From a virus, in the IMG/VR virus record IMGVR_UViG_3300025437_000011, positions 1-64,000 of that record: 64,000 nt of DNA. One strand, written 5' to 3'. The notes below the pieces were generated by a model. The model saw nothing but the letters and a program-made list of their open reading frames with translations, was not told the DNA's origin and made no database searches. A program made the translations under genes and the position numbers. Shown here piece by piece: positions 3,165 to 64,000 of the stretch (the stretch's first letter is position 1; each line of letters starts with the position of its first letter).

Positions 3165-3187
3165 TAAGTGTAATAGACTTTTATAAT
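3165..3187 (+). promoter_or_regulatory. candidate late promoter before the portal gene
   Basis: The gap between terL and portal contains AAGTGTAATAG (3165-3175) and then TATAAT (3182-3187), whose last base is 6 nt before the portal ATG at 3193. There is no Shine-Dalgarno and no -35. The same AAGTGTAATAG plus TATAAT pairing, with 1 nt difference in spacing, recurs at 17370-17393. Transcription would start at or next to the ATG. Confidence 0.45.
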
Positions 3188-3192
3188 ATATA

Positions 3193-5190
3193 ATGAGAAA
3201 GAAGGCATCAACGGTAAAGGCAAAAGATTCAGAAGTAAGGGCCTCGGCGGAAAAGCCGAAGAAAAACCTTGTAGTTCCTGAGCCATCTCTTATTGCTGGA
3301 TCGGCAACTTTAGACAATATAATGGAGGTCAAGGCCGATGCGTCTGATGATTTTTATAATACGGATACTTATACTCAAGTACCGGGCACCAGAAGAAATC
3401 GCGCGGCAACAATTACTAGAACAACCCAATATGCTAATATTGAAGGTGGTATCGTTCCTTTTATTTATAGTGGTGGCCGTGGTAATTATACCTCAAATAT
3501 TAGTATTCGTGATGGTATTATTCTGTGTCAAAAAGCTTATTATAACTATCCTATTTTCCGTAACACAATTGACCTAATGACGGAATTTAGCTGTTCTCCT
3601 ATTTATTTTAGTGGGGGTAATGCGCAGTCTAGAAGATTTTTTGAGGCTTGGGCGGAAAGAGTTAATCTTTGGAAGTTGCAGGACTCATTCTTTAGGGAAT
3701 ATTTCAGAAGTGGTAATGTATTCATGTATAAGTTAAATGCTACCTTCAAGAAGGAAGACATGATGACAATCACTCAACTAATGGGTGCAACTGAAAGGGA
3801 TATTCCTATTCGTTATGTAATTTTAAATCCTGCAGATATTCAATCAATCGGATCTGCTTCTTTTATTGCACCTAGATATGTTAAGGTTCTTAACGATTTT
3901 GAAATGCAGCTTCTTACTAATCCAAAAACAGATGAGGACAAAAAATTAGCTGAAAAAATTAGAGAGTTTGCACAAATTCAAGACACAGTAAAGATTTCTC
4001 AGGCAAATGCCTATCTGGTCTTCTATCTAGACCCTGATAAGGTCAAGGCAGTATTCTATAAAAAACAGGATTATGAGCCATTTAGTGTTCCGATGGGGTT
4101 CCCAGTTCTTAGAGATATTAATTGGAAACAGGAATTAAAGAATATTGACATGGCAATTAGTCGTACTGTTCAACAGGCGGTTCTTCTTGTCACGATGGGT
4201 AATGATGAAATTGGAATGCCAAGTAAGGCACAAATTCAGGCACTAACAAATATCTTTCAGAACGAGAGTGTTGGGCGAATACTGGTGGCAGATTATACAA
4301 CAAAAGTTCAATTTGTTATCCCAGAAATCGCCCACATTCTCGATCCTAAAAAATATGAAATTGTAGACAAGGATATTAGGGAAGGTTTAAACAGTATTCT
4401 ATTGGGAGATGAAAAGTATGCTAACTCACAAACTAAAGTTGAAGTATTTCTTGCTAGATTAAAGCATTCTAGAGAAATGTTTATGAATCAATTTTTATTG
4501 CCTGAAGTTAAAGAAATTGCAAAAGAGCTTGGTTTTAAATCTGTTCCCACTCCAAGATTTAAAGATGTAGACTTTAAAGATGATAGTACTTTGGCGAGAA
4601 TTTATTCAAGACTTATTGAGATCGGCGTTTTGACCCCAGAAGAGGGCGTTACTGCAATTGATACTGGTAGACTACCAACTCCAAATGAGAGTGTGGAAAA
4701 TCAGCGTAAACTTGCCGAATATCACAAGGAAGGTCTTTATCAGCCAGTTCTTAATAATCCTAATCTACTTATACCCGGCGGTGAGGGAGCGGGAAGGCCT
4801 TCGGGAACTGGTGGAACACCAAAAGCACAAAGCAAAATTTCTCCAGTTGGTAAGAGTTCTCCTGCTGGGCCTAAAAATAAAATTTCCGCAACAAAGGTTG
4901 CTGAAAATTTGACAAAATTTGACTTATTGGTTGCTAGTGTTGAAACTACTCTAAAAGAAAAATTTAATAAAAAGAAACTATCCAAAGAACAAAAGAAGAT
5001 TGTGACTGAAGTTGCAGAAACAATTGGTATAAATGAATCTCCCGATAAGTGGATGGAAAGTATTGCGGAATATATTAATAATCCAGTGCAGTTAACCGAC
5101 AATTTTGCAGAAGTTCAAGAGATTGCCGAAAAGCATGGTGTAGATACAAAAACTGCGCTTCTATTAATGCATAGTGAAATTGAGGAATAA
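3193..5190 (+). CDS. portal protein
   Basis: 665 residues. Portal identity rests on position directly after terL, length, and the typical core: an N-terminal arm, then an alpha/beta body with FRNTIDLMTEF, SGNVFMYKL, YVILNPADIQ, and the stem/crown part ending in a helical region around residue 430 (LARLKHSREMFMNQFLLPEVKEIA split over the clip). It forms the 12-mer ring through which DNA enters and to which the tail attaches. The C-terminal 150 residues are a low-complexity Gly/Pro/Ser/Lys linker (about 520-570) followed by a helical tail, an extension beyond the usual core. No ribosome-binding site precedes the start; a -10-like TATAAT does. Confidence 0.88.
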   Translation: MRKKASTVKAKDSEVRASAEKPKKNLVVPEPSLIAGSATLDNIMEVKADASDDFYNTDTYTQVPGTRRNRAATITRTTQYANIEGGIVPFIYSGGRGNYTSNISIRDGIILCQKAYYNYPIFRNTIDLMTEFSCSPIYFSGGNAQSRRFFEAWAERVNLWKLQDSFFREYFRSGNVFMYKLNATFKKEDMMTITQLMGATERDIPIRYVILNPADIQSIGSASFIAPRYVKVLNDFEMQLLTNPKTDEDKKLAEKIREFAQIQDTVKISQANAYLVFYLDPDKVKAVFYKKQDYEPFSVPMGFPVLRDINWKQELKNIDMAISRTVQQAVLLVTMGNDEIGMPSKAQIQALTNIFQNESVGRILVADYTTKVQFVIPEIAHILDPKKYEIVDKDIREGLNSILLGDEKYANSQTKVEVFLARLKHSREMFMNQFLLPEVKEIAKELGFKSVPTPRFKDVDFKDDSTLARIYSRLIEIGVLTPEEGVTAIDTGRLPTPNESVENQRKLAEYHKEGLYQPVLNNPNLLIPGGEGAGRPSGTGGTPKAQSKISPVGKSSPAGPKNKISATKVAENLTKFDLLVASVETTLKEKFNKKKLSKEQKKIVTEVAETIGINESPDKWMESIAEYINNPVQLTDNFAEVQEIAEKHGVDTKTALLLMHSEIEE

Positions 5191-5192
5191 TT

Positions 5193-6608
5193 ATGGCACA
5201 AAGTTTAATTAACAAAACACAGTTAGCTCCAAATATATCCGATCTTGTTAGCGGTTATGGGCAAAACTTTTTTTACCCATTACTTTCTAATCCAAGTGGA
5301 TATGTAACCTCATCATCTTTGAGTAGTACGGGAGTGTTCGCAACTACCGGTCAGTTAAGCGGTTACTATCCGAGAAGCAATCCTAGTGGGTATATTACCG
5401 GAAATTTATCTTTATATACACCACTGGCATCTTTTAATTCTTTAAGTGGTTCTTTCGCCTATTTAAGTGGATATGTTATAAATAACAGTCTTGTCACTAC
5501 TTTATATTTAAGTTCGCAAAATTATGCTTCAGCAAGTTCACTTTCTGCTTTAAGCTCTTCTTTAAATAATTCGTATTCTGCATTAGCCTTAAATGTTGCT
5601 TCTACTGGTTCAACTTTAAGTAATCAAATATTATCTTTAAGCGGAACGCTGACTGGATCAATTTATTCGACCAGTGGTGCCCTATCTGGGTCGATTAATT
5701 CTCTAAGCGGAACTCTAACATCTACCTACGCGACCATTACAAATCTTGCTTCAACCGGATCTACGCTCACAAGTAATCTAGCGACGACTGGTTCAACACT
5801 CGCCGGGTCAATTAATTCTCTAAGCGGAACACTGACTAGTAATTATGCGACCAATGCTTCTGTAACTAGTATTGTCAACAGTGCAGTTGCAGTAACAGTT
5901 GTTTTAACTACTGGAGATCAGTTTATTAGTGGTTCGAAAACCTTTACAACTGGAGTTACAATTACTGGCAATGTTAATACATTACTAAACGTAACTGGAT
6001 TATATTCAGGTTATCAGCAAATTAATATTCAAAATTTTTCTAATTCGCAAGGCGCTAGTTCTGATTTTGTAGCTACCGCTGATTTCGGAAATCAAAATTC
6101 AGGATATGTGGATCTGGGAATCAATAGCTCAAAATACACTGGAGCATATGTGGGATATACTGGAGATGCATATCTGTACTCGCTTGCAAATGATTTTTAT
6201 ATTGGTAATGCAAATCCGAATGCAAAATTATATTTATTTGCAGGAAATACTCCATACTCTGGAAACCAAGCTGGTCTTACAGTTTTTAATAATAATTTTG
6301 GTATTAATAATTCTAACCCTACCTTTAATTTAGATGTTAGTGGAAATACTCGTTTTTCTGGAAATATAAATGTAAGTGGAACTGGTATTTTTGCTAAAAA
6401 TATAAATGTAAGTGGAACTGGTATTTTCACTTATGACTTAAATGTCGGTGGAAGTGGTAATTTTTCTAGTGGTGTTTTTTCTAAGGGTAGTCCGGTTATT
6501 ACGGGCAATTCAACGGTCACCTCTATTATAGGGATGGGACTAAGCGCATATAATGCATTAGGTGCCCAGATTAATCCTGCTACTCTTTATATTATAACGG
6601 GGGCTTAA
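5193..6608 (+). CDS. tail fibre-type protein with Ser/Gly/Thr repeats
   Basis: 471 residues, Ser/Gly/Thr/Asn-rich with very few charges. Residues about 110-225 hold degenerate repeats of the type LSGTLTGS / ASTGSTL that suggest a fibrous beta or triple-helical shaft. From about 270 the sequence (SDFVATADFGN, YVDLGINSS, DAYLYSLANDFYIGN, AKLYLFAGN) matches a module common at the tip of phage fibres, then NINVSGTGIF is repeated twice. Inference: a trimeric fibre or receptor-binding component. It is unusual for a fibre gene to sit directly behind the portal, separated from the tail genes by about 10 kb. It ends 1 nt before the next gene. Confidence 0.7.
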   Translation: MAQSLINKTQLAPNISDLVSGYGQNFFYPLLSNPSGYVTSSSLSSTGVFATTGQLSGYYPRSNPSGYITGNLSLYTPLASFNSLSGSFAYLSGYVINNSLVTTLYLSSQNYASASSLSALSSSLNNSYSALALNVASTGSTLSNQILSLSGTLTGSIYSTSGALSGSINSLSGTLTSTYATITNLASTGSTLTSNLATTGSTLAGSINSLSGTLTSNYATNASVTSIVNSAVAVTVVLTTGDQFISGSKTFTTGVTITGNVNTLLNVTGLYSGYQQINIQNFSNSQGASSDFVATADFGNQNSGYVDLGINSSKYTGAYVGYTGDAYLYSLANDFYIGNANPNAKLYLFAGNTPYSGNQAGLTVFNNNFGINNSNPTFNLDVSGNTRFSGNINVSGTGIFAKNINVSGTGIFTYDLNVGGSGNFSSGVFSKGSPVITGNSTVTSIIGMGLSAYNALGAQINPATLYIITGA

Positions 6609-6609
6609 C

Positions 6610-7524
6610 ATGTTATTAACTCAAGCTAGTGGCATACTTCTTGGGACAACGCAGATTTTTAAGATCTATCGGGGTAGTACGCTGGTTTGGCAGGCAGCAT
6701 CGCAATTAGATGTTAATACTCTTTTTTATGTTGATAGTGTGCAAAAGGCAGATGGTCAAGCCTTGGAGTCTACGGTTATATCCGCTATGAATACATTTAT
6801 CACGGGATGCAAGGCTGATGGAACGTGGAGCGGTTTGCAGTCCTCATGTTTAATGGCCGGACCGCGCACATTAACTGGCGCACTACAACCTTTAATGTTG
6901 GGACAACCTGGTCCAACAAATTATAATTTTAACACTAATGATTATAATAGAACATCTGGAATTCATAGTAGTGGAACTAGAGCCGGAACGGCAAAATTTT
7001 TAGACACAAATAGAAGATTTGATGCGGACGGTTTTGGAAATCAGCATATGGCTGTTTATGTAACAAAAGCGCTGGCTGGAACTAGTACATATATGGGTAT
7101 TGTTGGAGCCACAAACGAATATTCCTCGATTGGCGCGCATTTTGGAGCCGCCCCCTATGTTAGGCAATTACAATTTTATTGCCAAAATAGTAAAACTGAT
7201 TATGCTGCAAATCAGAGCGCTGTAGCTACTGGCTATATTGGTATTAACTCTATAGCTAATTATGTTTTATATGCACAATATGGTTACAGATTTTCCCAAT
7301 CAGACCATATCGCCTCAAATAATTCAACTCCATATTATCCCCCCATAACTGGCACGGCCTATGTATTTTCTAGGGGAAATTATCTTTCCATACCGAAGCA
7401 GGAATATAATTGCTCAGCGACGTTATCTTATTATTCGTTTGGGCCAAAAATTCCTAGCCAGTCATTACTAGATAGTAGAATTACTCAGTATATGCAAACA
7501 ATTCAGTCTCTTGGCTTATCTTGA
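6610..7524 (+). CDS. putative fibre tip / receptor-binding protein
   Basis: 304 residues, no signal peptide or membrane segment. The middle part (SCLMAGPRTLTGALQPLM, then TNYNFNTNDYNR and TAKFLDTNRRFDADG) belongs to a domain often found at the end of phage fibre genes, with a beta-sandwich-like composition rich in aromatic, Gly, Ser and Thr residues. Its position immediately after the fibre gene, with a 1-nt gap, suggests the pair act together, one as shaft and one as tip or adhesin. The N-terminus (LLGTTQIFKIYRGSTLVWQ) looks like a small attachment motif. Function is inferred from context and composition. Confidence 0.6.
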   Translation: MLLTQASGILLGTTQIFKIYRGSTLVWQAASQLDVNTLFYVDSVQKADGQALESTVISAMNTFITGCKADGTWSGLQSSCLMAGPRTLTGALQPLMLGQPGPTNYNFNTNDYNRTSGIHSSGTRAGTAKFLDTNRRFDADGFGNQHMAVYVTKALAGTSTYMGIVGATNEYSSIGAHFGAAPYVRQLQFYCQNSKTDYAANQSAVATGYIGINSIANYVLYAQYGYRFSQSDHIASNNSTPYYPPITGTAYVFSRGNYLSIPKQEYNCSATLSYYSFGPKIPSQSLLDSRITQYMQTIQSLGLS

Positions 7525-7553
7525 CAATTATTAATTAATTTTTAATTAATTTG

Positions 7554-7561
7554 GTGTAAAT
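7554..7561 (+). promoter_or_regulatory. candidate late promoter for the lysis cassette (GTGTAAAT)
   Basis: GTGTAAAT lies at -14 to -7 relative to the ATG at 7568, with no -35 and no Shine-Dalgarno. The predicted start of transcription is at the ATG itself. The TTGACA at 7521-7526 is too far upstream to pair with it. Confidence 0.45.
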
Positions 7562-7567
7562 AGTATC

Positions 7568-8173
7568 ATGAGGAATTTAACAATAGCACTATTTGGAGTT
7601 CTATTTTTTTTAGGTGGATGTAATCCTAAATTTATAGAAAAGCAATCCGAGCCATTAAAGCAGGCCGTCTATGGTGTAAATGATTCACTTGATAAGGGAA
7701 GAATAGATCTTGCTTGGTACTATTCAAATGAAACTACTCGTTTAGTTAGTCCTCCTGCCGTTAGACTTGATGTAAAGAGTTTATACCAAACGGTTGATGT
7801 TAAAAAAAACCCCACCGGACAAAGGGTTATTATTTTGCCAGAACAGCTTAAGGGTAATAAAGTTGTAGTTGTTAATACGGATGACTACAAGGAATTATTG
7901 AAAAATAAAGATGTTGCGAATCAATTAAAAAATGAAATTGTAGAAAAAACAAAATTCACCGATACTATTATTAAGCAACAGAAAAATAACGAAAAAATTC
8001 AGTCTGATCTTTTAAATTCATACAATGCGGCTAAATTAAAAATCTCGCAAAAAGATACATCTATTTGGTATAGAAATTTTATAATTTTAGGTTTATTAGT
8101 ATTGATTGGTGGATATATTGGTTTAAGAGTTGCTATTTCATATGGCAAAATGTCTCTACCCTTTTTAATATAA
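7568..8173 (+). CDS. putative unimolecular spanin (lipoprotein with C-terminal TM helix)
   Basis: 201 residues. A lipoprotein signal peptide is visible: charged start, hydrophobic stretch, lipobox LGGC with the lipid-accepting Cys at 18, and Asn at +2, compatible with outer-membrane sorting. A helical, coiled-coil-prone centre (about 110-160) follows, then a C-terminal hydrophobic helix at about 171-190. This topology, outer-membrane lipid anchor plus inner-membrane TM helix in one chain, is that of u-spanins such as T1 gp11, which fuse the two membranes in the last step of lysis. The genes next door are holin-like and endolysin, which supports the call. It implies a host with an outer membrane. 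Confidence 0.72.
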   Translation: MRNLTIALFGVLFFLGGCNPKFIEKQSEPLKQAVYGVNDSLDKGRIDLAWYYSNETTRLVSPPAVRLDVKSLYQTVDVKKNPTGQRVIILPEQLKGNKVVVVNTDDYKELLKNKDVANQLKNEIVEKTKFTDTIIKQQKNNEKIQSDLLNSYNAAKLKISQKDTSIWYRNFIILGLLVLIGGYIGLRVAISYGKMSLPFLI

Positions 8174-8179
8174 AATATT

Positions 8180-8644
8180 ATGTGGCAGCAAATAATAGAT
8201 GTCGCTAAAACTGCACACGCTTTTTTAACTAACGGCGAGGCGCCTCCAAATACCCCAGATTATTTAAAACGGCAAATGGAAGATACGAACCATTTGGCTT
8301 CAAAGAAGTTTTTCATAATAATGACTTCTCTTCTGATTATAGTTACTATGTTTTTTATTGCCGTTGCAATACTTTTTTTTATTCCAAAAGATCATGATAT
8401 TGTTATCACAACTTATGCGGCAATATTTAGTAAAATTATGGAACAGATTGCCCTAGTTATTTCTGTTTATTTGGGCGCACAGGGTCTGGTAGATTTAAAA
8501 TACAATTCTTCTTCAAGTGTTGGTGTTCAGGGTATTGCCGAATCTTCTAATGCTAATGAAAATAAAAATGTTAATTTAGATGAAAGAATTTTATCTAATA
8601 ATGCAAAAGAAAATGATTATAATATACAGGAGACCGCATTATGA
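8180..8644 (+). CDS. holin-like membrane protein
   Basis: 154 residues with two hydrophobic segments, about 44-68 and 78-104, separated by a short charged turn (PKDHD). A soluble N-terminus and a polar Asn/Glu-rich C-terminal tail (about 110-154) flank them. It sits between the spanin and the endolysin and overlaps the endolysin start (ATGA at 8641-8644). The size is at the upper end for a holin. Role inferred: forms the inner-membrane lesion that times lysis and releases the endolysin. Other small two-helix membrane proteins would look similar. Confidence 0.65.
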   Translation: MWQQIIDVAKTAHAFLTNGEAPPNTPDYLKRQMEDTNHLASKKFFIIMTSLLIIVTMFFIAVAILFFIPKDHDIVITTYAAIFSKIMEQIALVISVYLGAQGLVDLKYNSSSSVGVQGIAESSNANENKNVNLDERILSNNAKENDYNIQETAL

Positions 8645-9255
8645 AAAACCCAAGTGCAAAAGCTCTTTCACTAATTTTAGAATATGAAGTTGGCGGTGGC
8701 AAGGAGTATTATGAAAGGTTTTTAAGTGGCCCAACGTGGCCGGGCGGCGCAAGTGGCATGACTCTTGCTATAGGTATAGATTGTGGATACTATACACCTA
8801 CTGAATTATCTGAGATTTTTAATTTCCTTCCTCCTGATCAACTCAAGGCAGTTCGTGCAGCCTCTGGTAAAACTGGACAGGCTGGCAAAGAATATACAAA
8901 ATCCGTCCTTAACTTAAATATAAAAATAACATGGGATCAAGCAGTTGAAATATTTGATAAATATACTTGGCCAAAATTCGCCAGACTCGCTGAAAGAGCT
9001 TTTCCGGGTTTGGATTCTCTATGCGACAATGCATATGGTGCCATTGTTTCTTTGGTATTTAATCGTGGGGCTAGTATGGCTGGCGATAGCCGTAGAGAAA
9101 TGAGAGAGATTCGTGATCTAGTTCCTAAAAAGGATTATAGAAGTATTGCGGTAGAATTACAGAAGATGAAAAGAATTTGGAAAGATAAGGGTTTAGACGG
9201 GCTTTTAGAAAGGCGCGATGCCGAATCAAAACTTGTTCTTTCTTGCGCGAATTAA
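8641..9255 (+). CDS. endolysin, lysozyme-like muramidase
   Basis: 204 residues. The N-terminal part has the phage lysozyme pattern: candidate catalytic Glu in LEYEVGGG (E16, or E14), then PTWPGGASGMTLAIGIDCGY (31-50) with T41 and D47, the Glu-Asp/Thr arrangement seen in GH24- and pesticin-type muramidases. NAYGAIVSLVFNRG further on matches the second conserved block of these enzymes. No signal peptide, so export needs the holin. CAGGAGA at 8628-8633 is a good Shine-Dalgarno 7-8 nt before the start, showing that operon-internal genes do use ribosome-binding sites. It degrades the murein between the membranes. Confidence 0.85.
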   Translation: MKNPSAKALSLILEYEVGGGKEYYERFLSGPTWPGGASGMTLAIGIDCGYYTPTELSEIFNFLPPDQLKAVRAASGKTGQAGKEYTKSVLNLNIKITWDQAVEIFDKYTWPKFARLAERAFPGLDSLCDNAYGAIVSLVFNRGASMAGDSRREMREIRDLVPKKDYRSIAVELQKMKRIWKDKGLDGLLERRDAESKLVLSCAN

Positions 9256-9265
9256 TTTAGTTTTC

Positions 9266-9275
9266 GTGTAAGAAT
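9266..9275 (+). promoter_or_regulatory. candidate late promoter before the capsid protease gene
   Basis: GTGTAAGAAT in the 35-bp gap between endolysin and protease-scaffold genes, 25 nt before the ATG. It shares the GTGTAA core with other late candidates. No Shine-Dalgarno is present before the ATG at 9291. Confidence 0.3.
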
Positions 9276-9290
9276 ATTATTACTATTAAT

Positions 9291-11273
9291 ATGATTATCG
9301 TTGAAGACTCCGCTAGAAATTTTAATTTAAATGATTTAGAGTATAGTCCCGGTAAACAAATTAACTTGTGTGCTTTTGAGGTTACAAATAAAGATTCCGA
9401 TGAGAAGCTTTTAGTGAGTTCTAATCTAAAAAATATTGCCCCTATAGAAGGTGCGGGTGTAAAACTTACTATGCACGATAATTTCAAGTATCATTCTGTC
9501 TTTGATGGTATCATTGTTCAGGCGAAAATTGCCGAAGACCAAGACAAATATTTAGCAACTGCTTCTATTAATCAACTAAAACAATTTCTTCCCACTCATA
9601 TTAACCTAGATGTTAACAAGGATTTAATGGCAGTAGCTTTTGATGCTTTTGTAGTTAATCGCGGTAATAAGAATGGACACATTATTGGTAATGATGTTGC
9701 ATTTAATATGTTAAAGAATTTTGTTAATAAGCCCTTTAATATCGAGCATAATAGGAAAACAATTGTCGGCTTTTGTACTGGTTATGGATTTAGTTCTTTC
9801 GGCTCTAGTCAGCCGCTAACCTCAGAACAAGTCCAAGATACAAATGAACCGTTCAACGTTGTTCTTTCTGGTTTTGTTTGGAAGGTTGCCAATCCAGAAT
9901 TTGCAGAAGAGCTTGCCGAGAGTAGTGATCCTAGTTCACCAAAGTATCTTTCTGTAAGTGCAAGTTGGGAATTAGGTTTCAATGAATTCAATGTTGCCAA
10001 GGGTAGTAAGAATTTAAATGAGGCGACTATTGTTGATGAGCCAGATACAATCATGGCAATGAAAGATGATCTAAAAGTATTTGGTGGAAGTGGTTTTCAT
10101 CAAGATGGACAGCCAATTTATTTGAATCTACAGGGTTCTGTTCTTCCTCTCGGTATCGGCTTTACAAATAACCCGGCCGCAGAAGTAAAGGGCGTTCTAG
10201 TTCGTGATGAGGCTGAAGACTATAAGGCTAAAGCAAATTTAAATGATATTAATAACAAAAAAAGTGTCCACTCTAATATACAAGATGTAAAAAACAACAT
10301 GCAAATCAACAAGCTTGAAGATATCACCGATGAGGCTATCAAGGAACTAACAGCAAGTGCAGTGCGCGAATTTATTTCGAGTAAGATCGCTGAACATGCA
10401 AAAGATTGGTCAGCCAAAGTAAACGAAAAAGAAACTTCGCTAGAGGCTGCGGTTGCCGAGGCAACAGCGCTAAAGACTGATCTAGAATCAATCAAGGCAG
10501 AAGTTGCCGCAATGCAACAGGCTATCAAGGCTAATGAGATTGCAGCTAATTTCCAACGCCGCATGAGTCTAATCGACGAAGAGTTCAATCTAACCGATGC
10601 TGATCGTGAGATCATTGCTGAAGATCTAAACGCTATTGAGAACGACGAGGCTTTCACAAAATGGTATAACCGTTTCGCAGTTTTAGCTTCCGGCAAGAAA
10701 AAGTCTGAGCGCGAGTCTGTTGACCAGCAAGAGCTTGTAGAGGGTGCAGACAAGATCAAGGATGGGGGTTCAAATAGGGCCGAGGTTTCTCCTGCAAAGA
10801 ATGCCCCTAACAAGACAGCACAAAAAATTAAAAATGACAAGGATGTAAGTGCTGATGATGAAGCAATGGCTGATGAGGAAAATGAGTTTGCCGGATCCAA
10901 GGCAAAAGCCGATAAGAAAGATAAAGAAATGGACAACGGCCCAGTTACAGCAACAGCTGGTGAGGGTTCTGTTGAAACAAACGATGAAGTTTCAAAACAC
11001 TATAATTATTCCGAGCAAAAATATAAAAAGCCAGCTGGCTTCCCAGAGAGTAATGTTGAGTCACTAGAGAAATATGAGTCTCAAGAACACAATCCACTCA
11101 AGACTCTTCCTGAAGTTGGAGAGAACGCCCTTGCAAGTAAGGTTGCAAAGATTGTTGCCTCAGTTCAAGTTGAGGAACAGCTAATTCCTAACTCCATGAG
11201 TCCCGCTCAGGATTCACTGGTTCAAAAAATAAGTGCTGCTTTCAATAGAAACAGTGTAACATTTAATAAGTAA
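9291..11273 (+). CDS. capsid maturation protease fused to scaffold
   Basis: 660 residues. Residues 1-310 form a prohead protease domain: NIEHNRKTIVG holds a candidate catalytic His (H153) and KYLSVSASWEL the candidate nucleophile Ser (S221/S223). The rest is scaffold-like: a helical coiled-coil region (about 340-425), a charged low-complexity Lys/Asp/Glu segment (about 468-545), and a C-terminal helical end. Such fusions guide capsid assembly and are then cleaved away. Met337 at 10299 follows an A-rich stretch and marks the point where codon choice changes, so an internal start giving scaffold alone is possible. It sits directly before the decoration and capsid genes. Confidence 0.82.
   Translation: MIIVEDSARNFNLNDLEYSPGKQINLCAFEVTNKDSDEKLLVSSNLKNIAPIEGAGVKLTMHDNFKYHSVFDGIIVQAKIAEDQDKYLATASINQLKQFLPTHINLDVNKDLMAVAFDAFVVNRGNKNGHIIGNDVAFNMLKNFVNKPFNIEHNRKTIVGFCTGYGFSSFGSSQPLTSEQVQDTNEPFNVVLSGFVWKVANPEFAEELAESSDPSSPKYLSVSASWELGFNEFNVAKGSKNLNEATIVDEPDTIMAMKDDLKVFGGSGFHQDGQPIYLNLQGSVLPLGIGFTNNPAAEVKGVLVRDEAEDYKAKANLNDINNKKSVHSNIQDVKNNMQINKLEDITDEAIKELTASAVREFISSKIAEHAKDWSAKVNEKETSLEAAVAEATALKTDLESIKAEVAAMQQAIKANEIAANFQRRMSLIDEEFNLTDADREIIAEDLNAIENDEAFTKWYNRFAVLASGKKKSERESVDQQELVEGADKIKDGGSNRAEVSPAKNAPNKTAQKIKNDKDVSADDEAMADEENEFAGSKAKADKKDKEMDNGPVTATAGEGSVETNDEVSKHYNYSEQKYKKPAGFPESNVESLEKYESQEHNPLKTLPEVGENALASKVAKIVASVQVEEQLIPNSMSPAQDSLVQKISAAFNRNSVTFNK
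11254..11262 (+). promoter_or_regulatory. candidate late promoter for the capsid genes (GTGTAACAT)
   Basis: GTGTAACAT lies in the last codons of the scaffold gene. If transcription starts 14 nt downstream, as at the other GTGTAA sites, the mRNA begins near 11268 and has a leader of about 60 nt before the decoration gene. Confidence 0.35.
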
Positions 11274-11280
11274 AAATTTC

Positions 11281-11330
11281 AGATAAGCAATTATCTAAAA
11301 ACAAACAAAAAAACAACATAACAAAAATTT
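11281..11330 (+). promoter_or_regulatory. capsid-gene leader: GCAA-loop hairpin plus A-rich SD-less tract
   Basis: AGATAA (11281-11286), GCAA loop, TTATCT (11291-11296) form a perfect 6-bp stem closed by a GNRA-type tetraloop. The next 34 nt are almost only A and C and contain no Shine-Dalgarno. A similar A/C-rich, SD-free run precedes the major capsid gene. A stabilising 5' hairpin plus an unstructured leader fits strongly expressed genes. Confidence 0.45.
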
Positions 11331-11906: not shown

Positions 11907-11934
11907 TCTTAACCATTAACCAAAACAAATTTAT

Positions 11935-13582: not shown

Positions 13583-13591
13583 GTGTAAAAT
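13583..13591 (+). promoter_or_regulatory. candidate late promoter (GTGTAAAAT) before a GTG start
   Basis: GTGTAAAAT lies 14 nt upstream of the GTG start at 13597, the same spacing as at 7554 and 63875. There is no Shine-Dalgarno and no -35. Confidence 0.4.
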
Positions 13592-17370: not shown

Positions 17371-17393
17371 AGTGTAATAGAATTTGGTATAAT
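17370..17393 (+). promoter_or_regulatory. candidate late promoter after the tube terminator
   Basis: AAGTGTAATAG (17370-17380) followed by TATAAT (17388-17393), nearly the same pair as upstream of the portal gene. It directly follows the terminator. Here the start codon is 30 nt downstream and an AAAGG (17412-17416) is present, so this transcript has a short leader with a ribosome-binding site. Confidence 0.5.
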
Positions 17394-19432: not shown

Positions 19433-19442
19433 GTGTAAATAT
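19433..19442 (+). promoter_or_regulatory. candidate late promoter before the tape measure (GTGTAAATAT)
   Basis: GTGTAAATAT in the 39-bp gap before the tape measure gene. Transcription starting about 14 nt downstream would place the hairpin at 19447-19459 at the very 5' end of the mRNA. Confidence 0.45.
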
Positions 19443-29454: not shown

Positions 29455-29461
29455 GTGTAAA
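29455..29461 (+). promoter_or_regulatory. candidate late promoter (GTGTAAA) before the second distal tail gene
   Basis: GTGTAAATT starts 21 nt before the ATG at 29476. If initiation is 14 nt downstream, the leader is about 7 nt and contains only AGG. Confidence 0.35.
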
Positions 29462-44316: not shown

Positions 44317-44345
44317 TTGACTAACTAATAAAGTTGTTTCACATT
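44317..44345 (+). promoter_or_regulatory. candidate promoter for the sigma-like gene
   Basis: TTGACT (44317-44322), 17 nt, then CACATT (44340-44345), ending 7 nt before the ATG at 44353. The -35 is good and the -10 poor, as in promoters needing an activator. Confidence 0.35.
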
Positions 44346-44352
44346 TGTATAA

Positions 44353-44955
44353 ATGACACTAGATCTAGAAAATATTAAAGATGAAAAGTTAGTAGAGAAT
44401 GTAAAAACAAAATCCTGCAATACTAGTCTAACAGAACTGATCAGTAGACACAGTGGAATCTGTTTTAGTATGGGAAAAAAGTTTTCTCAATACGGATCAT
44501 TCAAGCTAAATGATTTAAACGACAATAAAGATTGGATTATATATTCCGCAGCACTATCGTTTGATTCTTCCAAGGGTGCAAAATTTTCTACTTGGCTAGG
44601 TAATCAGGTAAAGTATTACTGTTTGAATTTAAAAAACAAATCGTCGAAGTATGTTGAAACCGAAGAGTCAACTATTGAATTTTTAATCAACCAGTATTAT
44701 AATGAAAATAAATCAACAGACTTGAAGGCGCAAATATTGTATACAGTACAAGATATCCTAGATCAAATTAAAGATAAGAATATAAAAAACGCAATTCATT
44801 ATAGATACTTTTCGAACCAAGACCGAATTTTAAATTATTCCGAAATAGGCGAGATACTCAACGTGACACCACAAACCGTCTTGAACTGGCATAATAAATT
44901 TATAGAACTTGCGAAAAAAAAGTTGACTTCCCTTAACAATAGCGATATAATCTAA
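44353..44955 (+). CDS. short sigma-70-family-like transcription factor
   Basis: 200 residues. About 25-92 resemble sigma region 2: LTELISRHSGICFSMGKKF, DWIIYSAALSFDSSKGAKFSTWLGNQVKYY, where the FDxxKGxKFSTW block is the core signature of region 2.1-2.4 of sigma-70 proteins. About 145-192 resemble region 4 (AIHYRYFSN, YSEIGEILNVTPQTVLNWH), a helix-turn-helix that would contact the -35 or an activator. Regions 1 and 3 are absent, as in compact phage late sigma factors such as T4 gp55. Inference: directs the host polymerase to a phage-specific class of promoters. A promoter for the next gene lies inside its 3' end. Confidence 0.75.
   Translation: MTLDLENIKDEKLVENVKTKSCNTSLTELISRHSGICFSMGKKFSQYGSFKLNDLNDNKDWIIYSAALSFDSSKGAKFSTWLGNQVKYYCLNLKNKSSKYVETEESTIEFLINQYYNENKSTDLKAQILYTVQDILDQIKDKNIKNAIHYRYFSNQDRILNYSEIGEILNVTPQTVLNWHNKFIELAKKKLTSLNNSDII
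44923..44951 (+). promoter_or_regulatory. sigma70-like promoter inside the sigma gene 3' end
   Basis: TTGACT (44923-44928), exactly 17 nt, TATAAT (44946-44951), 9 nt before the ATG at 44961. It is close to consensus and gives a leader of only about 3 nt. The promoter lies wholly within the last codons of the sigma-like gene. Confidence 0.75.
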
Positions 44956-46969: not shown

Positions 46970-46994
46970 ATGTTGTAATATACTAACACAACAT
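46970..46994. promoter_or_regulatory. inverted repeat upstream of nrdB
   Basis: ATGTTGT (46970-46976), 11 nt, ACAACAT (46988-46994): perfect 7-bp arms just before the nrdB start, overlapping -10-like TATACT (46979-46984). A TTGACC at 46959-46964 is only 14 nt from that box. Reads as an operator or mRNA stem; it is not the usual NrdR box. Confidence 0.4.
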
Positions 46995-47003
46995 TCTTAT
47001 ATT

Positions 47004-47975: not shown

Positions 47976-47995
47976 GACTCAGTCTATAGTATAAT
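47967..47995 (+). promoter_or_regulatory. sigma70-like promoter, leaderless start of nrdA
   Basis: TTGTTT (47967-47972), 17 nt, TATAAT (47990-47995). The start codon at 48002 is 7 nt past the -10, so +1 would coincide with the ATG. No Shine-Dalgarno. Allows separate expression of nrdA. Confidence 0.65.
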
Positions 47996-48001
47996 ACTTT
48001 C

Positions 48002-50037: not shown

Positions 50038-50046
50038 GTGTAATAT
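50038..50046 (+). promoter_or_regulatory. candidate promoter (GTGTAATAT)
   Basis: GTGTAATAT ends 6 nt before the ATG at 50053. It has the GTGTAA core and no -35, and no ribosome-binding site lies between it and the ATG. Confidence 0.4.
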
Positions 50047-56191: not shown

Positions 56192-57031
56192 ATGAAAATT
56201 ATAATTCCAATGGCCGGAACTGGGGATAGGTTTGTAAAAAAAGGATACAAAGAACCCAAGCCTCTTATTAAGGTAGCCGGAAAGAGAATTATCGAATATA
56301 TCTTAGATATGTTTTCCCCAACAGAAGATGAAATTATATTTATTTGCAACAACAAGCATATCGAGGAGACAAATATGGAAACTGAGCTTAAAAAGCTAGT
56401 ACCAAATTGTAAAATTGTTTCCATACCTCCACACAAAAAAGGCCCAGTTCACACCGTAAAATACGCTTTCAATCTTATTGAAGACGATGAGCATGTTATA
56501 GTATCATATTGCGACAATCCGTTAGTATGGGATAGGTCAGATTTTGAGTTAAGTGTAAGCAAACTTGCTCTAGACGGTTGCGTCCTAACACACACAGGAT
56601 TTCATCCACACACATTAAATAATACTAAAATGGCTTTTCTAAAAACCGAAAATGGTTTAATGACAGAAATAAAAGAAAAAGAATGTTATACAGATAATCC
56701 AATGAACGAGCATGCGTCTACTGGTATTTACTATTTTAATACCGGAGCAATTTTGAAAAAATATTTTCAAGAAATAATTGATTTGGATATTAACCATAAT
56801 GGAGAATACTATGTAACGTTAGTATATAACCTATTACAGCGCGATGGTCTAAGGGTTGGGTACTATGATACACCTCATGTTACGGTTTTTGGCACCCCAG
56901 AAGAAGTAGAAAATTTTGAGGCATGGAATAATATTATTACAGGCGGTCAAATAAAAAATGAAAAAGATTTAATAAATTGCTATAATTACTGGAAGAATTA
57001 TCGAAACTTTAATACTAAAAATATTCTATGA
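56192..57031 (+). CDS. sugar-phosphate nucleotidyltransferase
   Basis: 279 residues. GT-A-type nucleotidyltransferase: start KIIIPMAGTGDRF (G-x-G-x-R nucleotide loop), EPKPLIKVAGK, then YCDNPLVWDRSDF where the Asp binds Mg2+ and nucleotide, and a central NEHASTGIYYFNTG segment. It would activate a sugar or polyol phosphate with NTP to give an NDP-sugar. The gene overlaps the next by 4 nt (ATGA at 57028-57031). Exact nucleotide and sugar unknown. Confidence 0.82.
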   Translation: MKIIIPMAGTGDRFVKKGYKEPKPLIKVAGKRIIEYILDMFSPTEDEIIFICNNKHIEETNMETELKKLVPNCKIVSIPPHKKGPVHTVKYAFNLIEDDEHVIVSYCDNPLVWDRSDFELSVSKLALDGCVLTHTGFHPHTLNNTKMAFLKTENGLMTEIKEKECYTDNPMNEHASTGIYYFNTGAILKKYFQEIIDLDINHNGEYYVTLVYNLLQRDGLRVGYYDTPHVTVFGTPEEVENFEAWNNIITGGQIKNEKDLINCYNYWKNYRNFNTKNIL

Positions 57032-57471
57032 TAAAAATATCCCATCGTGGTAATATCAACAATATTGACCATACCAGAGAAAACAGTCCGTCATATATAG
57101 ACGAGGCAATTCGTATGGGGTATGATGTAGAAATAGATATAAGATTTATAAACGATCAATTATATCTTGGGCATGATATACCAGAGTATAAAATTGATAT
57201 TAACTTCCTAACAAAAAGGAAAGATAACTTATGGGTACATACTAAAGATTTTAAATCCTTAAGTAGATTAATTAGTTTGCCTTTAAGAATTTTCTTTCAC
57301 GAAAAAGAAGCACACACTATTATTCATAATACAAATTTAATATGGTCTCATAATCTTAATGAGTCAAATGAAAATTCTATTATACCCCTTCTAACAAGAC
57401 AGTCAATTTCAGAGTCTAGTAAATATATGCACGTATATGGAATATGCTCAGATTTTGTTGGTTTAATTTGA
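57028..57471 (+). CDS. glycerophosphodiester phosphodiesterase-like protein
   Basis: 147 residues, shorter than usual GDPD enzymes (about 240), so only part of the TIM barrel is present. Visible catalytic pieces: ISHRGNIN (H6, R7), ENSPSYIDEAIRMGYDVEIDIR (E-x-D metal/acid pair) and LGHD (second His). These are the N-terminal active-site motifs. The C-terminal half is unlike known GDPD, and the gene may be a reduced enzyme or a glycan-domain relative. Translationally coupled to the nucleotidyltransferase, so its substrate may be a glycerol- or polyol-phosphate intermediate. Confidence 0.65.
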   Translation: MIKISHRGNINNIDHTRENSPSYIDEAIRMGYDVEIDIRFINDQLYLGHDIPEYKIDINFLTKRKDNLWVHTKDFKSLSRLISLPLRIFFHEKEAHTIIHNTNLIWSHNLNESNENSIIPLLTRQSISESSKYMHVYGICSDFVGLI

Positions 57472-57488
57472 TAATATAAATATATAAT

Positions 57489-58265
57489 ATGGATGCGATA
57501 ATTCAGGGGCCAATATACGTAAATGACACTCCTAGTGTTATTTATAATTTATTAAATACGTCTTTTATTGATCGGGTAATCGTTTCTTGCTGGGAAAGTT
57601 GCCCAGATATATTTCCCCTTAATGACCGAGTGATAGTTATTAAAAATAAACCCAATGCTAATTCTGGGTATCAAAACAGAAACTTACAAATTCAATCTAC
57701 AAAAGCTGGTTTAGAAAAAGTAACTTCAGAATATTGTGCAAAATTTAGATCTGACCAGATAATTGCAATATCAAGTTTAGAAATGATGAATAGATTCTTT
57801 CATAAGTTTAAAGAATCTAATCTTAGATATACCAATGGTCTCAAACCGAAATCTAAAATTTTTGTTTGTGGAGATTTTTGGCCATTACCATTTCATCCAA
57901 GAGATCATGTTTATTGGTCGGACACAGAAAGCATGAAAGTTTTATTTAGTTTGCCGTATGATGAATCACCAAAATTTGATACGGAGCGCTTTAATGAGGC
58001 AACACGCGCAGAAACATATATTGGTAGTTACTATTATGCAAAATTTAATAGTGAGATCTATAAAATGATCGAACAGCAAGGTACTTACCTATGGGATAAC
58101 GCCCCCAAAAGAAACGAGGCATTAGAACTATCACTTTCGATGAAAGACGAAGTTTTTAAAGTATTCCCAAGAATTGAGATGACTTGGCCCAAATATAATA
58201 TCTACGGATATAAATATAATGAGCAATCAGTATGGGAAAGATGGCACGATGAAAAATGGGACTAA
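57489..58265 (+). CDS. WavE-like LPS glycosyltransferase
   Basis: 258 residues. MDAIIQGPIYV start, NANSGYQNRNLQIQSTKAGLEKV, CAKFRSDQIIAI and FWPLPFHPRDHVYWSD follow the pattern of WavE proteins of LPS-core gene clusters (QGPI, NRQIxSxxxGL, KxRxD). The Asp in FRSDQ would coordinate the donor metal. The AT-rich gap upstream holds -10-like TATAAA (57475-57480), 9 nt before the ATG. A second TATAAT abuts the ATG. Confidence 0.7.
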   Translation: MDAIIQGPIYVNDTPSVIYNLLNTSFIDRVIVSCWESCPDIFPLNDRVIVIKNKPNANSGYQNRNLQIQSTKAGLEKVTSEYCAKFRSDQIIAISSLEMMNRFFHKFKESNLRYTNGLKPKSKIFVCGDFWPLPFHPRDHVYWSDTESMKVLFSLPYDESPKFDTERFNEATRAETYIGSYYYAKFNSEIYKMIEQQGTYLWDNAPKRNEALELSLSMKDEVFKVFPRIEMTWPKYNIYGYKYNEQSVWERWHDEKWD

Positions 58266-58266
58266 T

Positions 58267-58332
58267 ATGAAGACAGTTTTTATTACTACATATTCTTCCA
58301 GAAGAAATTTTAAAGAAAAAAGTTTATTTTAG
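58267..58332 (+). other. short 21-codon frame, possible gene remnant or leader peptide
   Basis: ATG at 58267 followed by 20 more codons and TAG. The peptide MKTVFITTYSS looks like the beginning of a Rossmann enzyme but then runs out. It could be a decayed gene start or a leader peptide upstream of the methyltransferase gene. Weak evidence. Confidence 0.3.
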
Positions 58333-58334
58333 AT

Positions 58335-58363
58335 TTAAATTATTGTATACTGTAGTATATAAA
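58335..58363 (+). promoter_or_regulatory. candidate promoter before the C-methyltransferase gene
   Basis: TTAAAT (58335-58340), 17 nt, TATAAA (58358-58363), 8 nt before the ATG at 58371. The near-palindromic TATAC-TGTA-GTATA (58346-58359) overlaps the -10 and could be an operator. Confidence 0.45.
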
Positions 58364-58370
58364 CACGCTT

Positions 58371-59615
58371 ATGAATATCAAATATAGACAAACTTGCAGA
58401 ATTTGTGGGAACCCTAATTTAGCACCAGTAATAGACTTGGGGAACCAGTATTTTCAAGGGTCTTTTATTAAAGATGGCGTTACACCTCCTGCCACAAGAA
58501 AAACGCCCAACTTGATTGTTCGATGCGATACATCTAAATTCGAAGATGCGTGTGGTCTAATACAAACGCGTCATTCCGTCCCTGCTGATATATTATACAG
58601 CAACTATTGGTATCAGTCTGGTATCAGTAATACAATGAGAACTCATCTTAAAAATATTGTAGACGAATGCCTTAAAATTACCAATCTCTCCGAGGGTACT
58701 GTTCTAGATATAGCGTCAAATGACAACACTCTTTTAAGAAACTACCCCACAACTTTTAAAAAAGTTGGCGTTGACCCCTCTGATATTGCAGGAAAACAAA
58801 CTGATGAAGACATAAGAGTTATCAATACTGTTTTTCCTACGGAGAAACTTACAAATGAAAAGTTTGATATTGTAACTTCCATAGCATGTTATTATGACGT
58901 TGAAGATCCAAAGTTTTTTGCTGAACAGGTGAGAGATCATTTAAATAATGATGGTATCTGGGTTTTTGAAGTTGCCTATTGGCCGCTAATGTTATCTAAC
59001 CTATCTTATGATAGTATTGTTAATGAACATATTATTCACTATCACCTCGCCCCACTGGAGATCATGATGAATAAAATAGGACTAAAAATTTTTAATGCAA
59101 GGAAAACCACTACAAATGGTGGAAGCATAATGGTATATATTTGCAAGTCTGAAAATACGAAATATGATCTAAAGGAAAACAAGGAGCGCCTCTTGACATT
59201 AAGACTAGAAGAATTTAATTCGGCTCTGGATGAGGAAAGCACTTATGTACTTTTTAGAGAAAAAGTCGAACAACAAAAAAATGATTTGCAATCTTTAATT
59301 AAAAAGATCCAAGCCGAAGGTAAAACCGTGCACATCTATGGTGCATCAACAAAACTTAACACCATTTTAGGATATTGCGACCTTGGCCCAGAGTCAATAG
59401 AATATGCGGCAGAACGTAGTCCAGATAAATTTGGCGCAAAAACCATTAGCGGAATTAAACTTATTTCCGAAGAGGAGAGTCGCGCAATGAAACCAGATTA
59501 TTATTTAGTTGGCCCATATCATTTTAAAGAAGAAATTCTAGCAAGAGAACAAGATACCATAAATTCTGGCACAAAGTTTATTTTCCCACTACCCACTGTG
59601 ACAATAGTTGGATGA
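58371..59615 (+). CDS. sugar C-methyltransferase
   Basis: 414 residues, the full three-part architecture of NDP-sugar C-3 methyltransferases (TylC3/NovU type). N-terminal zinc domain with C9, C12, C52 and C61. Central SAM domain with LSEGTVLDIASNDNTLL, HLNNDGIWVFEVAYW, and MNKIGLKIFNARKTTTNGGS. C-terminal Methyltransf_14-like domain with VHIYGASTKLNTILGYCDL, YAAERSPDKFG and YLVGPYHF. It adds a methyl group to a keto-sugar nucleotide, making branched deoxysugars. It could use the keto product of the GDP-mannose dehydratase encoded 8 kb upstream. Confidence 0.85.
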   Translation: MNIKYRQTCRICGNPNLAPVIDLGNQYFQGSFIKDGVTPPATRKTPNLIVRCDTSKFEDACGLIQTRHSVPADILYSNYWYQSGISNTMRTHLKNIVDECLKITNLSEGTVLDIASNDNTLLRNYPTTFKKVGVDPSDIAGKQTDEDIRVINTVFPTEKLTNEKFDIVTSIACYYDVEDPKFFAEQVRDHLNNDGIWVFEVAYWPLMLSNLSYDSIVNEHIIHYHLAPLEIMMNKIGLKIFNARKTTTNGGSIMVYICKSENTKYDLKENKERLLTLRLEEFNSALDEESTYVLFREKVEQQKNDLQSLIKKIQAEGKTVHIYGASTKLNTILGYCDLGPESIEYAAERSPDKFGAKTISGIKLISEEESRAMKPDYYLVGPYHFKEEILAREQDTINSGTKFIFPLPTVTIVG

Positions 59616-63390: not shown

Positions 63391-63391
63391 T

Positions 63392-63880
63392 ATGAGACTT
63401 TCATTTGATGAATATGGAGCGCTTTTAGCCCTTGTAATTAAAAGCAGGTCAGAAGACCCTCACACACAGGTCGGAGGAGTAGCTTTTAATAATGAGAAAA
63501 GAATTAAATCAACTGGATATAATGGATTAAAATCTGGAATGATAATGCCCGAATGGATGAGACTAGAACATAATCGTGCCGAGAAGGGCGATTTGATGAT
63601 TCATTGTGAAAGTAATTTGTGTTCAGGACTCACCAAAGGAGAATGCGATACTATATATTTAACTATTAGTCCATGCATAAAATGCTGTCAAAATATTGCG
63701 GCTTTAGATATTAAAAGAGTTATATATATCAAAGAATATACAAAATGTAATAAATATAAAGAGTTTCTATCCTTTCATGGTATAGGATATAGAGAACTCT
63801 CAGATCAAGAAAAACAAAATATTAAAAACTACTTAATAGATCATAATAATTTTCTTGAATTAGCCTTAAATAATGTGTAA
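63392..63880 (+). CDS. deoxycytidylate deaminase
   Basis: 162 residues, cytidine/deoxycytidylate deaminase fold. The zinc site is H71-C-E73 (HCESN, usually HAE) with Pro-Cys-x2-Cys (C95, C98 in SPCIKC). N-terminal EDPHTQVGGVAFN and TGYNGLKSG are family motifs that bind nucleotide. It converts dCMP to dUMP, feeding thymidylate synthesis. Starts 1 nt after the primase stop. Matches the nucleotide-pool function of nrdA/nrdB and dNMP kinase. Confidence 0.88.
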   Translation: MRLSFDEYGALLALVIKSRSEDPHTQVGGVAFNNEKRIKSTGYNGLKSGMIMPEWMRLEHNRAEKGDLMIHCESNLCSGLTKGECDTIYLTISPCIKCCQNIAALDIKRVIYIKEYTKCNKYKEFLSFHGIGYRELSDQEKQNIKNYLIDHNNFLELALNNV

Positions 63881-63882
63881 TA
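63855..63882 (+). promoter_or_regulatory. candidate promoter before the right-edge gene
   Basis: TTGAAT (63855-63860), 16 nt, GTAATA (63877-63882) inside GTGTAATAT, 7 nt before the ATG at 63889. It combines a -35-like box with the GTGTAA core. Confidence 0.45.
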
Positions 63883-63888
63883 TTGTAC

Positions 63889-64000
63889 ATGACTAAAACT
63901 CCAATTAAAAACTTATCTCAGACGATAAGGTCTTCTATAATAGACGATTATAAGTTAAATTATCTAACTCTAGATAAATTGGCAGAGAAGTATAATTATA
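63889..64000 (+). CDS. partial gene at the right edge, putative helix-turn-helix
   Basis: 37 codons are visible before the window ends (start MTKTPIKNLSQ). IRSSIIDDYKLNYLTLDKLAEKYNY fits the first helix and turn of a small helix-turn-helix domain. The start is just behind the GTGTAATAT/-10-like site with no ribosome-binding site. A DNA-binding regulator or recombinase is possible; the C-terminus is outside the window. Confidence 0.55.
   Translation, partial: MTKTPIKNLSQTIRSSIIDDYKLNYLTLDKLAEKYNY

What the first reader, a model, noticed from the sequence alone, without database searches (positions are those of the whole stretch)
3165..63891. Shared GTGTAA element, with no -35, in front of many structural genes: a candidate phage-specific late promoter
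Seen: GTGTAA(A/T/C/G)A-type sites stand in the short gaps before or at the end of the gene ahead of portal (3167), spanin (7554), protease-scaffold (9266), decoration/capsid (11254), connector (13583), post-tube genes (17372), tape measure (19433), distal tail (29455), and also at 50038 and 63875. Intergenic DNA is only a few percent of the window. At several sites the core starts 14-15 nt before the start codon. Copies also occur inside genes (e.g. near 7674, 13768, 29763), so motif enrichment needs testing. The core resembles the -10-only TATAAATA late promoter of T4.
Basis: partly seen in the sequence, partly recalled or inferred. Interest (0 to 1): 0.8.

Follow-up and report, generated by a model that had tools for sequence, protein, structure and literature searches.

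The report
Phage promoter switch, GTGTAAT, without -35
A short DNA word, GTGTAAT, stands where transcription should begin in front of many genes of a large group of uncultured phages, which also carry their own RNA polymerase specificity factors, so it is very probably the phages' private on-switch for genes used after the first stage of infection.

Summary
The count of GTGTAANA is ordinary (12 vs 8.97), but placement is not: GTGTAA is the most enriched hexamer in the 60 nt before gene starts of the 108-kb record (19 vs 2.2, p=2.5e-13) and sits in 80 of 80 terminase-portal gaps kept from relatives. In 1348 non-redundant starts it lies 45 times at exactly 14 nt, 4 times at 3-13 nt, as for a -10-type element starting transcripts at the start codon. 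It also precedes tRNA genes (8 of 105, 0.13 expected), which argues against a translation signal. No -35 consensus was found. Host-type promoters mark other genes.

Which sigma reads the element is unsettled. 'Late' is too narrow: 12 of 19 sites lie outside the structural block. No transcripts have been mapped.

The parts
3168..3174 (+). GTGTAAT element 25 nt before the portal gene
   Evidence: GTGTAA in 80 of 80 relatives' gaps, GTGTAAT in 33 of 33 distinct sequences
3160..3187 (+). AGATT-N17-TATAAT overlapping the portal GTGTAAT: possible second, two-part promoter
   Evidence: 28 of 33 distinct portal gaps have AGATT and TATAAT exactly 17 apart
7554..7560 (+). GTGTAAA element, 14 nt before start 7568
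   Evidence: 10 of 11 orthologous starts keep a GTGTAA, 9 at 14 nt
9266..9272 (+). GTGTAAG element, 25 nt before start 9291
   Evidence: 17 of 25 orthologous starts keep one
11254..11260 (+). GTGTAAC element in the 3' end of the preceding gene, 77 nt before start 11331
   Evidence: 8 of 15 orthologous starts keep one
13583..13589 (+). GTGTAAA element, 14 nt before GTG start 13597
   Evidence: 3 of 3 orthologous starts at 14 nt
17372..17378 (+). GTGTAAT element 52 nt before start 17424, just after a terminator-like hairpin (GGGCACC TTCG GGTGCCC, T-run)
19433..19439 (+). GTGTAAA element 38 nt before the 2796-aa gene (reader: tape measure)
   Evidence: conservation untested
29455..29461 (+). GTGTAAA element 21 nt before start 29476
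   Evidence: conservation untested
50038..50044 (+). GTGTAAT element 15 nt before start 50053 (unknown gene, two genes after ribonucleotide reductase)
   Evidence: conservation untested
63875..63881 (+). GTGTAAT element 14 nt before a LAGLIDADG homing-endonuclease-like gene (63889-64821 of the record)
   Evidence: PF14528, 7.9e-07; conservation untested
44353..44955 (+). sigma A: sigma-70-family-like protein with sigma2 and sigma4, 200 aa
   Evidence: relatives in all 8 of the searched records of 104 kb or more
44317..44322 (+). TTGACT, host-type -35 of the sigma A gene, 36 nt before its ATG
   Evidence: TTGAC[AT] before 11 of 11 sigma A genes, two pairs of which are near-identical; the -10 of the own copy is poor, 3 of 6
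13..318 (+). 3' end of the 364-aa gene that follows sigma B; sigma B itself ends 777 nt left of base 1 and is held in L002 (4086-4787)
   Evidence: L002 5564-18621 equals window 1-13058 at 100% over 13058 nt

Best explanation
GTGTAAT is a single-element promoter of the -10 kind, read by the host's core RNA polymerase carrying a phage-coded sigma factor; it serves middle-to-late genes and some tRNA genes. Proposed working: (1) host sigma-70 RNA polymerase transcribes the early genes from TTGAC[AT]-N17-TANNNT promoters, sigma A among them (pattern shown; activity inferred). (2) Core polymerase with a phage sigma then opens DNA at GTGTAAT and starts about 14 nt downstream of its first G; where that base is the start codon the mRNA has no leader (spacing shown; start site inferred). 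(3) A GTGTAA stands about 430 nt before sigma B, ahead of the genes that run on to terminase, so sigma B would come up in this second wave and either amplify it by reading the same element or take over a further class (inferred). I think sigma A opens the class, being the one sigma with a conserved host-type promoter, and that sigma B probably sustains it; the data do not decide between them.
For: First hexamer upstream of genes in the own record (19 vs 2.2); first in 7 of 11 records examined, the others being 2nd, 4th, 27th and 144th. The same script recovers TAAATA/TATAAA in T4 and does not rank GTGTAA first in any of 5 control phages. Hard edge: 4 sites at 3-13 nt, 45 at 14 nt in 1348 starts; host-type promoters peak with the -10 T 12 nt before the start (44 of 101), an inner yardstick. 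51 of 67 orthologous starts keep a site where the window has one, 6 of 295 where it has none. tRNA genes: 8 of 105 with GTGTAA at 14-18 nt vs 0.13 expected. No -35 consensus. Two gene sets: 1 start with both classes vs 11.3 expected. Two sigma-like proteins whose models align to sigma2 and sigma4 structures. No multisubunit RNA polymerase match in 9 records, with controls ringing.
Against: No RNA data at all; timing is inferred from gene content. Nothing but co-occurrence ties either sigma to the element. 12 of 19 sites of the own record are outside the structural block. Both sigma models have a sigma4 fold although no -35 consensus was found, which is unexplained; TTGACA-like words are somewhat commoner than in controls at spacers 13-14 (0.087 and 0.094 vs 0.053 and 0.040), which I did not pursue. 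Models are of middling quality (mean pLDDT 65.6 and 63.6) and the VIA Z values (8 to 10) are in a range that its note calls common for helical folds. By sequence, the sigma B profile finds no sigma in the PDB above noise (best sigma CnrH, E 1.9). Sites at 18-60 nt, which would have leaders, also rarely have Shine-Dalgarno words (5 of 68). G029 (63.6 kb, has sigma B) ranks GTGTAA only 27th (7 vs 1.1). tRNA cases partly repeat the same tRNA in related records. A T7-type polymerase is not excluded: the PF00940 search had no ringing control.
Confidence: 0.8

Rival explanations
1. Sigma B alone reads GTGTAAT and drives its own operon by positive feedback, after read-through transcription supplies the first copies; sigma A reads something else, perhaps the rarer AGATT-N17-TATAAT.
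For: Sigma B is beside 45 of 45 terminase loci with at least 4 kb upstream held. Loci found through distant sigma B relatives (45-50% identity) also have GTGTAA upstream of genes, 35 vs 3.6 pooled over 21 loci, third of all hexamers. G028 (89 kb) has sigma B and GTGTAA at rank 1, and no sigma A match. AGATT-N17-TATAAT is upstream of starts in 11 of 22 copies vs 1 of 9, 0 of 11 and 0 of 5 in controls.
Against: Start-up problem: 42 of 44 sigma B loci have a GTGTAA in the 1,500 nt before the gene, and no host-type promoter showed in the three layouts printed. Singly, GTGTAA is first in 1 and second in 2 of the 18 distant loci of 7 kb or more. G027, a distant record with sigma B, also has a sigma A relative. 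G028 is a fragment.
Confidence: 0.4
2. Sigma A alone reads GTGTAAT; sigma B serves another class or another task.
For: Sigma A genes have TTGAC[AT] upstream in 11 of 11 and no GTGTAA in the roughly 70 nt looked at: early gene. All 8 searched records of 104 kb or more have it. G026, with a 38%-identical sigma A and no sigma B in its 56 kb, has GTGTAA 2 and GTGTAT 4 at 14-18 nt of 85 starts, background 0.0.
Against: No other strong motif is left for sigma B, a protein kept next to the terminase. G026 is a fragment without a terminase match, and over 60 nt GTGTAA is only 144th there (3 vs 0.77).
Confidence: 0.4
3. GTGTAA is an RNA-level signal (ribosome binding or processing), not a promoter.
For: It is close to start codons, and none of the 60 genes with the element nearest the start has a Shine-Dalgarno-like word.
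Against: It also stands before tRNA genes, at 14 to 60 nt from starts with a sharp lower edge only, and hardly ever with a host-type promoter at the same start.
Confidence: 0.04
4. A host alternative sigma factor, or host sigma-70 helped by a phage activator, reads it.
For: The host is unknown; TGTAAT is one base from TATAAT.
Against: The element is found across records of 33-44% GC, which suggests several hosts; no companion site was found; the phages carry two sigma genes of their own.
Confidence: 0.1
5. Chance or an artefact of the gene caller.
For: The pattern count itself is ordinary.
Against: and at 14, 16 and 17 nt the TAA of the element is out of frame with the start, so it cannot have trimmed the called gene (my reasoning, no call).
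Confidence: 0.001

Closest known systems
phiEco32 gp36 and its middle/late promoters
   Same: Phage sigma; single element (tAATGTAtA), start 6-8 bp downstream, middle and late genes; early genes from host sigma-70 promoters (passages of PMC8948821)
   Different: Different letters; gp36 is said to lack region 4 homology (PMC8948821) while both sigma models here have a sigma4 fold; no profile match of sigma A to gp36; GTGTAA is 17th (5 vs 0.9) in the 50 kb of phiEco32 tested
T4 late promoters (TATAAATA, letters recalled) with gp55, gp33 and the gp45 clamp
   Same: 8-bp element at the -10 place, no -35 conservation, AT-rich downstream, either polarity (passages of PMC2988020)
   Different: Different letters; gp55 and gp33 are described as a split sigma, and that 2010 review says a fused late sigma has not been found; here each sigma seems to carry sigma2 and sigma4 in one chain. 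Clamp dependence untested
Phage 7-11 late promoters, sigma SaPh711_gp47
   Same: Phage sigma with region 4 homology, host-type early promoters (abstract and passages of PMC8948821)
   Different: Two-part promoter GTAAtg-(16)-aCTA; GTGTAAT can hardly be an upstream half, as many genes start 14 nt later
SPO1 sigma cascade (gp28 middle, gp34 late)
   Same: Two phage sigmas regulating middle and late genes (passages of PMC9429907)
   Different: SPO1 promoters are two-part (recalled); order and specificity here are unknown
Leaderless phage transcripts
   Same: A passage of PMC5312081 says phage transcripts are often leaderless, so this feature alone is not new
   Different: Here inferred from spacing only, for both promoter classes

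Membership tests
Sigma-70-family sigma factor (sigma A, 44353) | sigma2 and sigma4 domains | tested here: met
   PHROG 351 2.1e-06; TIGR02937 7.1e-06 but below its cut-off; Foldseek rows shown are sigma chains by title, best 5.9e-04; VIA: 24-98 on 8b3z_C Z 9.8 rmsd 2.2, 123-195 on 2h27_D Z 8.0 rmsd 3.1. Against or weak: own copy PF04542 E 0.02 and PF04545 0.001, both below cut-off, though the copy of G022 passes PF04542; the one Pfam hit over its cut-off is the unrelated P16-Arc, 6.9e-05, which I take as spurious; phmmer to PDB SigA only 0.015
Sigma-70-family sigma factor (sigma B, L002) | sigma2 and sigma4 domains | tested here: met
   PF04542 in 9 of 11 records, over cut-off in 7 of them; VIA: 156-232 on 2h27_D (sigma E region 4) Z 9.2 rmsd 2.5; Foldseek best 8.2e-04, a mycobacterial initiation-complex chain, then sigma H. 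Against or weak: no PF04545 match, no PHROG match, no PDB sequence match above noise
Sigma-70-family sigma factor (A and B) | binds core RNA polymerase and directs start | not testable with these tools
   needs biochemistry
T4-type late promoter | single -10-type element, no -35 | tested here: met
T4-type late promoter | TATAAATA sequence | tested here: not met
   core is (A/G)TGTAAW
T4-type late promoter | gp55/gp33 split sigma with sliding clamp activation | not tested
   no gp55, gp33 or gp45 search was made
phiEco32-type promoter | element tAATGTAtA | tested here: not met
phiEco32-type promoter | sigma homologous to gp36 | tested here: inconclusive
   hhalign of sigma A vs gp36: probability 0.1; sigma B not compared
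Host sigma-70 promoter | TTGACA-like -35 at 16-18 nt | tested here: not met
   TTGACA within 2 mismatches at spacers 16-18: 0.016-0.055 of 127 sites vs 0.038-0.048 of 546 controls

The most novel reading that the evidence does not exclude
A large, uncultured phage group (at least 543 sigma B loci in IMG/VR) runs on an undescribed two-sigma cascade with largely leaderless transcripts, in which a phage sigma that keeps sigma4 reads a single-element promoter, that is, the 'fused late sigma' that the T4 review says has not been found; the overlapping AGATT-N17-TATAAT and GTGTAAT at the portal gene would mark the hand-over between the two sigmas.
Probability: 0.35. Interest if true: 0.8.

Novelty: new variant of a known kind. 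Interest (0 to 1): 0.62.

Why it matters
It gives a readable regulatory code (which genes are early, which come later, where transcripts start) for a widespread phage group with no close cultured relative in the collection searched: no tblastn match for portal or sigma B, terminase at most 25.5% identical in the 20 of 56 rows listed. It names two concrete sigma genes to test on defined templates. It also bears on why T4 splits its late sigma in two, by offering one-chain sigmas beside a -35-less promoter.

Tried and rejected
GTGTAANA count as evidence: ordinary. A -35 partner: no consensus; the word TCTCTT (9 sites vs 0.2 expected) turned out to stand before one gene family of 194-199 aa; AT-rich words are commoner upstream of sites than in controls, which I read as intergenic composition. 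Terminators before sites: not enriched, 1 of 19 in the own record, 0 or 1 of 19-30 in six others. Reading sigma B as sigma2-only: suggested by Pfam, dropped after VIA aligned its C-terminal part to sigma4. Deciding between sigma A and sigma B by co-occurrence: G027 has both, G026, G028 and G029 are fragments. Comparison of sigma A with two Slash sigma factors: no clear match; nearest cultured-phage hit is the cyanophage S-TIM5 sigma, E 0.08. Host: the terminase finds no relative in genome contigs; NrdA relatives (80 kept of 181) are mixed (Opitutales 65%, Paceibacterota 62%, Flavobacteria about 60%, a Lokiarchaeota MAG 72%), so the host is unknown. PF00940 was silent in its controls too, so a T7-type polymerase is not excluded. 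Literature: ten searches answered. Only 23, 44 and 124 held the letters GTGTAA as a term (0, 7 and 7 papers); I saw no report of this element as a phage promoter among them. Two of those papers were opened at the word: PMC4331800, where it is the end of one predicted 7-11 promoter with another core (TGATGT), and PMC10957765, where it lies inside predicted host-type promoters; the rest were judged from the listing. The library is open-access only.
Full report
WHAT WAS CHECKED. The window is bases 1-64000 of a 108,475-base IMG/VR virus record. The 8-base pattern as written is not enriched (12 vs 8.97 expected). Placement is. With a greedy gene caller over the whole record, GTGTAA is the most over-represented hexamer (of those seen at least 5 times) in the 60 nt before starts: 19 of its 58 copies, 2.21 expected, p=2.5e-13, with 3 in antisense. 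Of the 19, nine lie in the window: seven in the structural block plus 50038 and 63875; ten lie to its right.

CONTROLS. The same script on 49 kb of T4 returns TAAATA and TATAAA (T4's late motif as I recall it), and does not put GTGTAA first in about 50 kb each of Slash, phiEco32 (17th, 5 vs 0.9), T4, MaeS or FADO. Of 186 terminase relatives found, the best 80 loci were kept. I tested 13 of these 80 singly: GTGTAA is 1st in 11, 2nd in one and 3rd in one; in five loci around the sigma A gene it occurs upstream 1, 0, 0, 0 and 0 times. Over the records own, G007, G012, G003, G008, G022, G023, G026, G027, G028, G029 its rank is 1, 1, 1, 2, 1, 1, 1, 144, 4, 1, 27.

CONSERVATION. All 80 loci have GTGTAA in the 60 nt after the terminase stop. 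In the 33 distinct sequences GTGTAAT is invariant; of the 14 columns before it three are invariant too. For window genes (starts up to 17 kb) with a site, 51 of 67 orthologous starts also have one within 120 nt; for genes without, 6 of 295 (related loci not thinned). At 9291 only 17 of 25 and at 11331 only 8 of 15 keep it.

WHERE TRANSCRIPTION WOULD START. In 1348 non-redundant starts of eight records, the first G of GTGTAA is 3-13 nt before the start in 4 cases, 14 nt in 45, 15 nt in 15, 16 nt in 12, then tails off, 158 in all up to 60 nt. Host-type TTGAC[AT]-N17-TANNNT promoters in the same genomes peak with the -10 T exactly 12 nt before the start (44 of 101), where leaderless sigma-70 transcripts would place it. 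So both classes behave as if starts may fall on the start codon but hardly behind it. None of 60 genes with the element nearest the start has a Shine-Dalgarno-like word; the rate is 5 of 68 for sites at 18-60 nt, 67 of 549 for starts without a site, and 6% in a background stretch, so such words are rare here in general. Host-type and GTGTAA classes share a start once, 11.3 expected. The element stands 14-18 nt before the mature end of 8 of 105 tRNA or tmRNA genes in seven records, 0.13 expected, and of 0 of 23 in G026; several of the eight are the same tRNA in related records.

SHAPE OF THE ELEMENT. In 124 non-redundant sites no upstream position reaches 0.2 bit; position 7 is T or A in 95%. 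TTGACA-like words at spacers 16-18 are no commoner than in controls; at spacers 13-14 they are somewhat commoner (0.087, 0.094 vs 0.053, 0.040). Changes seen above expectation at 14-17 nt are A at position 1, C or A at 3, T or C at 6; position 4 never varies there and position 5 hardly. At the portal gene the element overlaps AGATT-N17-TATAAT in 28 of 33 distinct gaps; elsewhere that pattern is rare (11 of 22 copies upstream of starts in eight records, 7 of them at portal genes; controls 1 of 9, 0 of 11, 0 of 5).

THE SIGMA GENES. Sigma A (44353-44955) matches sigma profiles weakly but consistently; its AlphaFold model (mean pLDDT 65.6) aligns to sigma chains over sigma2 and sigma4. It was found in 10 of 20 records, including all 8 of at least 104 kb; the 10 misses are 42-91 kb. 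Its gene has TTGAC[AT] upstream in 11 of 11 (two pairs near-identical), with -10 matches of 3 to 5 of 6. Sigma B came up in a region-2 search. L002 equals window 1-13058 at 100% and holds sigma B, ending 777 nt left of the window edge. It is encoded in 45 of 45 terminase loci with at least 4 kb upstream; 42 of 44 have a GTGTAA in the preceding 1,500 nt, about 430 nt away in the rows printed (one in a random 1,500 nt would be common, the fixed place is not). Its model (pLDDT 63.6) aligns mostly to ECF-type and other sigma factors, C-terminal part included; Z values of 8-10 are modest for helical proteins. In the 21 most distant loci listed, GTGTAA is 35 vs 3.6 upstream when pooled. Own record and G022 begin at the terminase, so sigma B is cut off there.

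READING. Shown: a non-random, conserved, strand-specific element at a fixed minimum distance from starts, separate from host-type promoters, in genomes with two sigma-like genes. Inferred: that it is a promoter, that host core polymerase with a phage sigma reads it, that the genes are middle-to-late. Open: which sigma, the use of sigma4, the host. By kind it is a phage-sigma single-element promoter as in phiEco32 and, in layout, T4; by sequence it belongs to neither.

Noticed in passing
L002 4086-4787 (ends 777 nt left of window base 1): A second sigma factor gene with a Cys-rich stretch between its two domains; no match in the cultured-phage collection, at least 543 IMG/VR loci.
   Followed up: yes
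G027 159385-159753 (+), L311: A further sigma-like frame (273 aa, E 2e-9 to the sigma A profile) in a distant 162-kb record.
   Followed up: no
L121 8700-9132: A tmRNA gene (tag ending ALAA) in phage record G012, with a GTGTAA 56 nt upstream.
   Followed up: no
window 63889-64000 and on (record to 64821): LAGLIDADG homing-endonuclease-like gene with its own GTGTAAT at 14 nt, inside the replication block.
   Followed up: partly
own record and seven others: Host-type TTGAC[AT]-N17-TANNNT promoters are very regular and placed for leaderless transcripts (44 of 101 at 12 nt), and Shine-Dalgarno words are rare: a clue to the unknown host.
   Followed up: partly
window 3160-3187: AGATT-N17-TATAAT overlapping the portal GTGTAAT; a like pattern (TAGA-N19-TATAAT) stands before a 144-aa gene near sigma A in G007, G022, G023.
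   Followed up: partly
window 46959-49663, 56192-59615: Ribonucleotide reductase genes and sugar/glycan genes (nucleotidyl transferase, WavE-like, C-methyltransferase); NrdA relatives are taxonomically mixed.
   Followed up: partly
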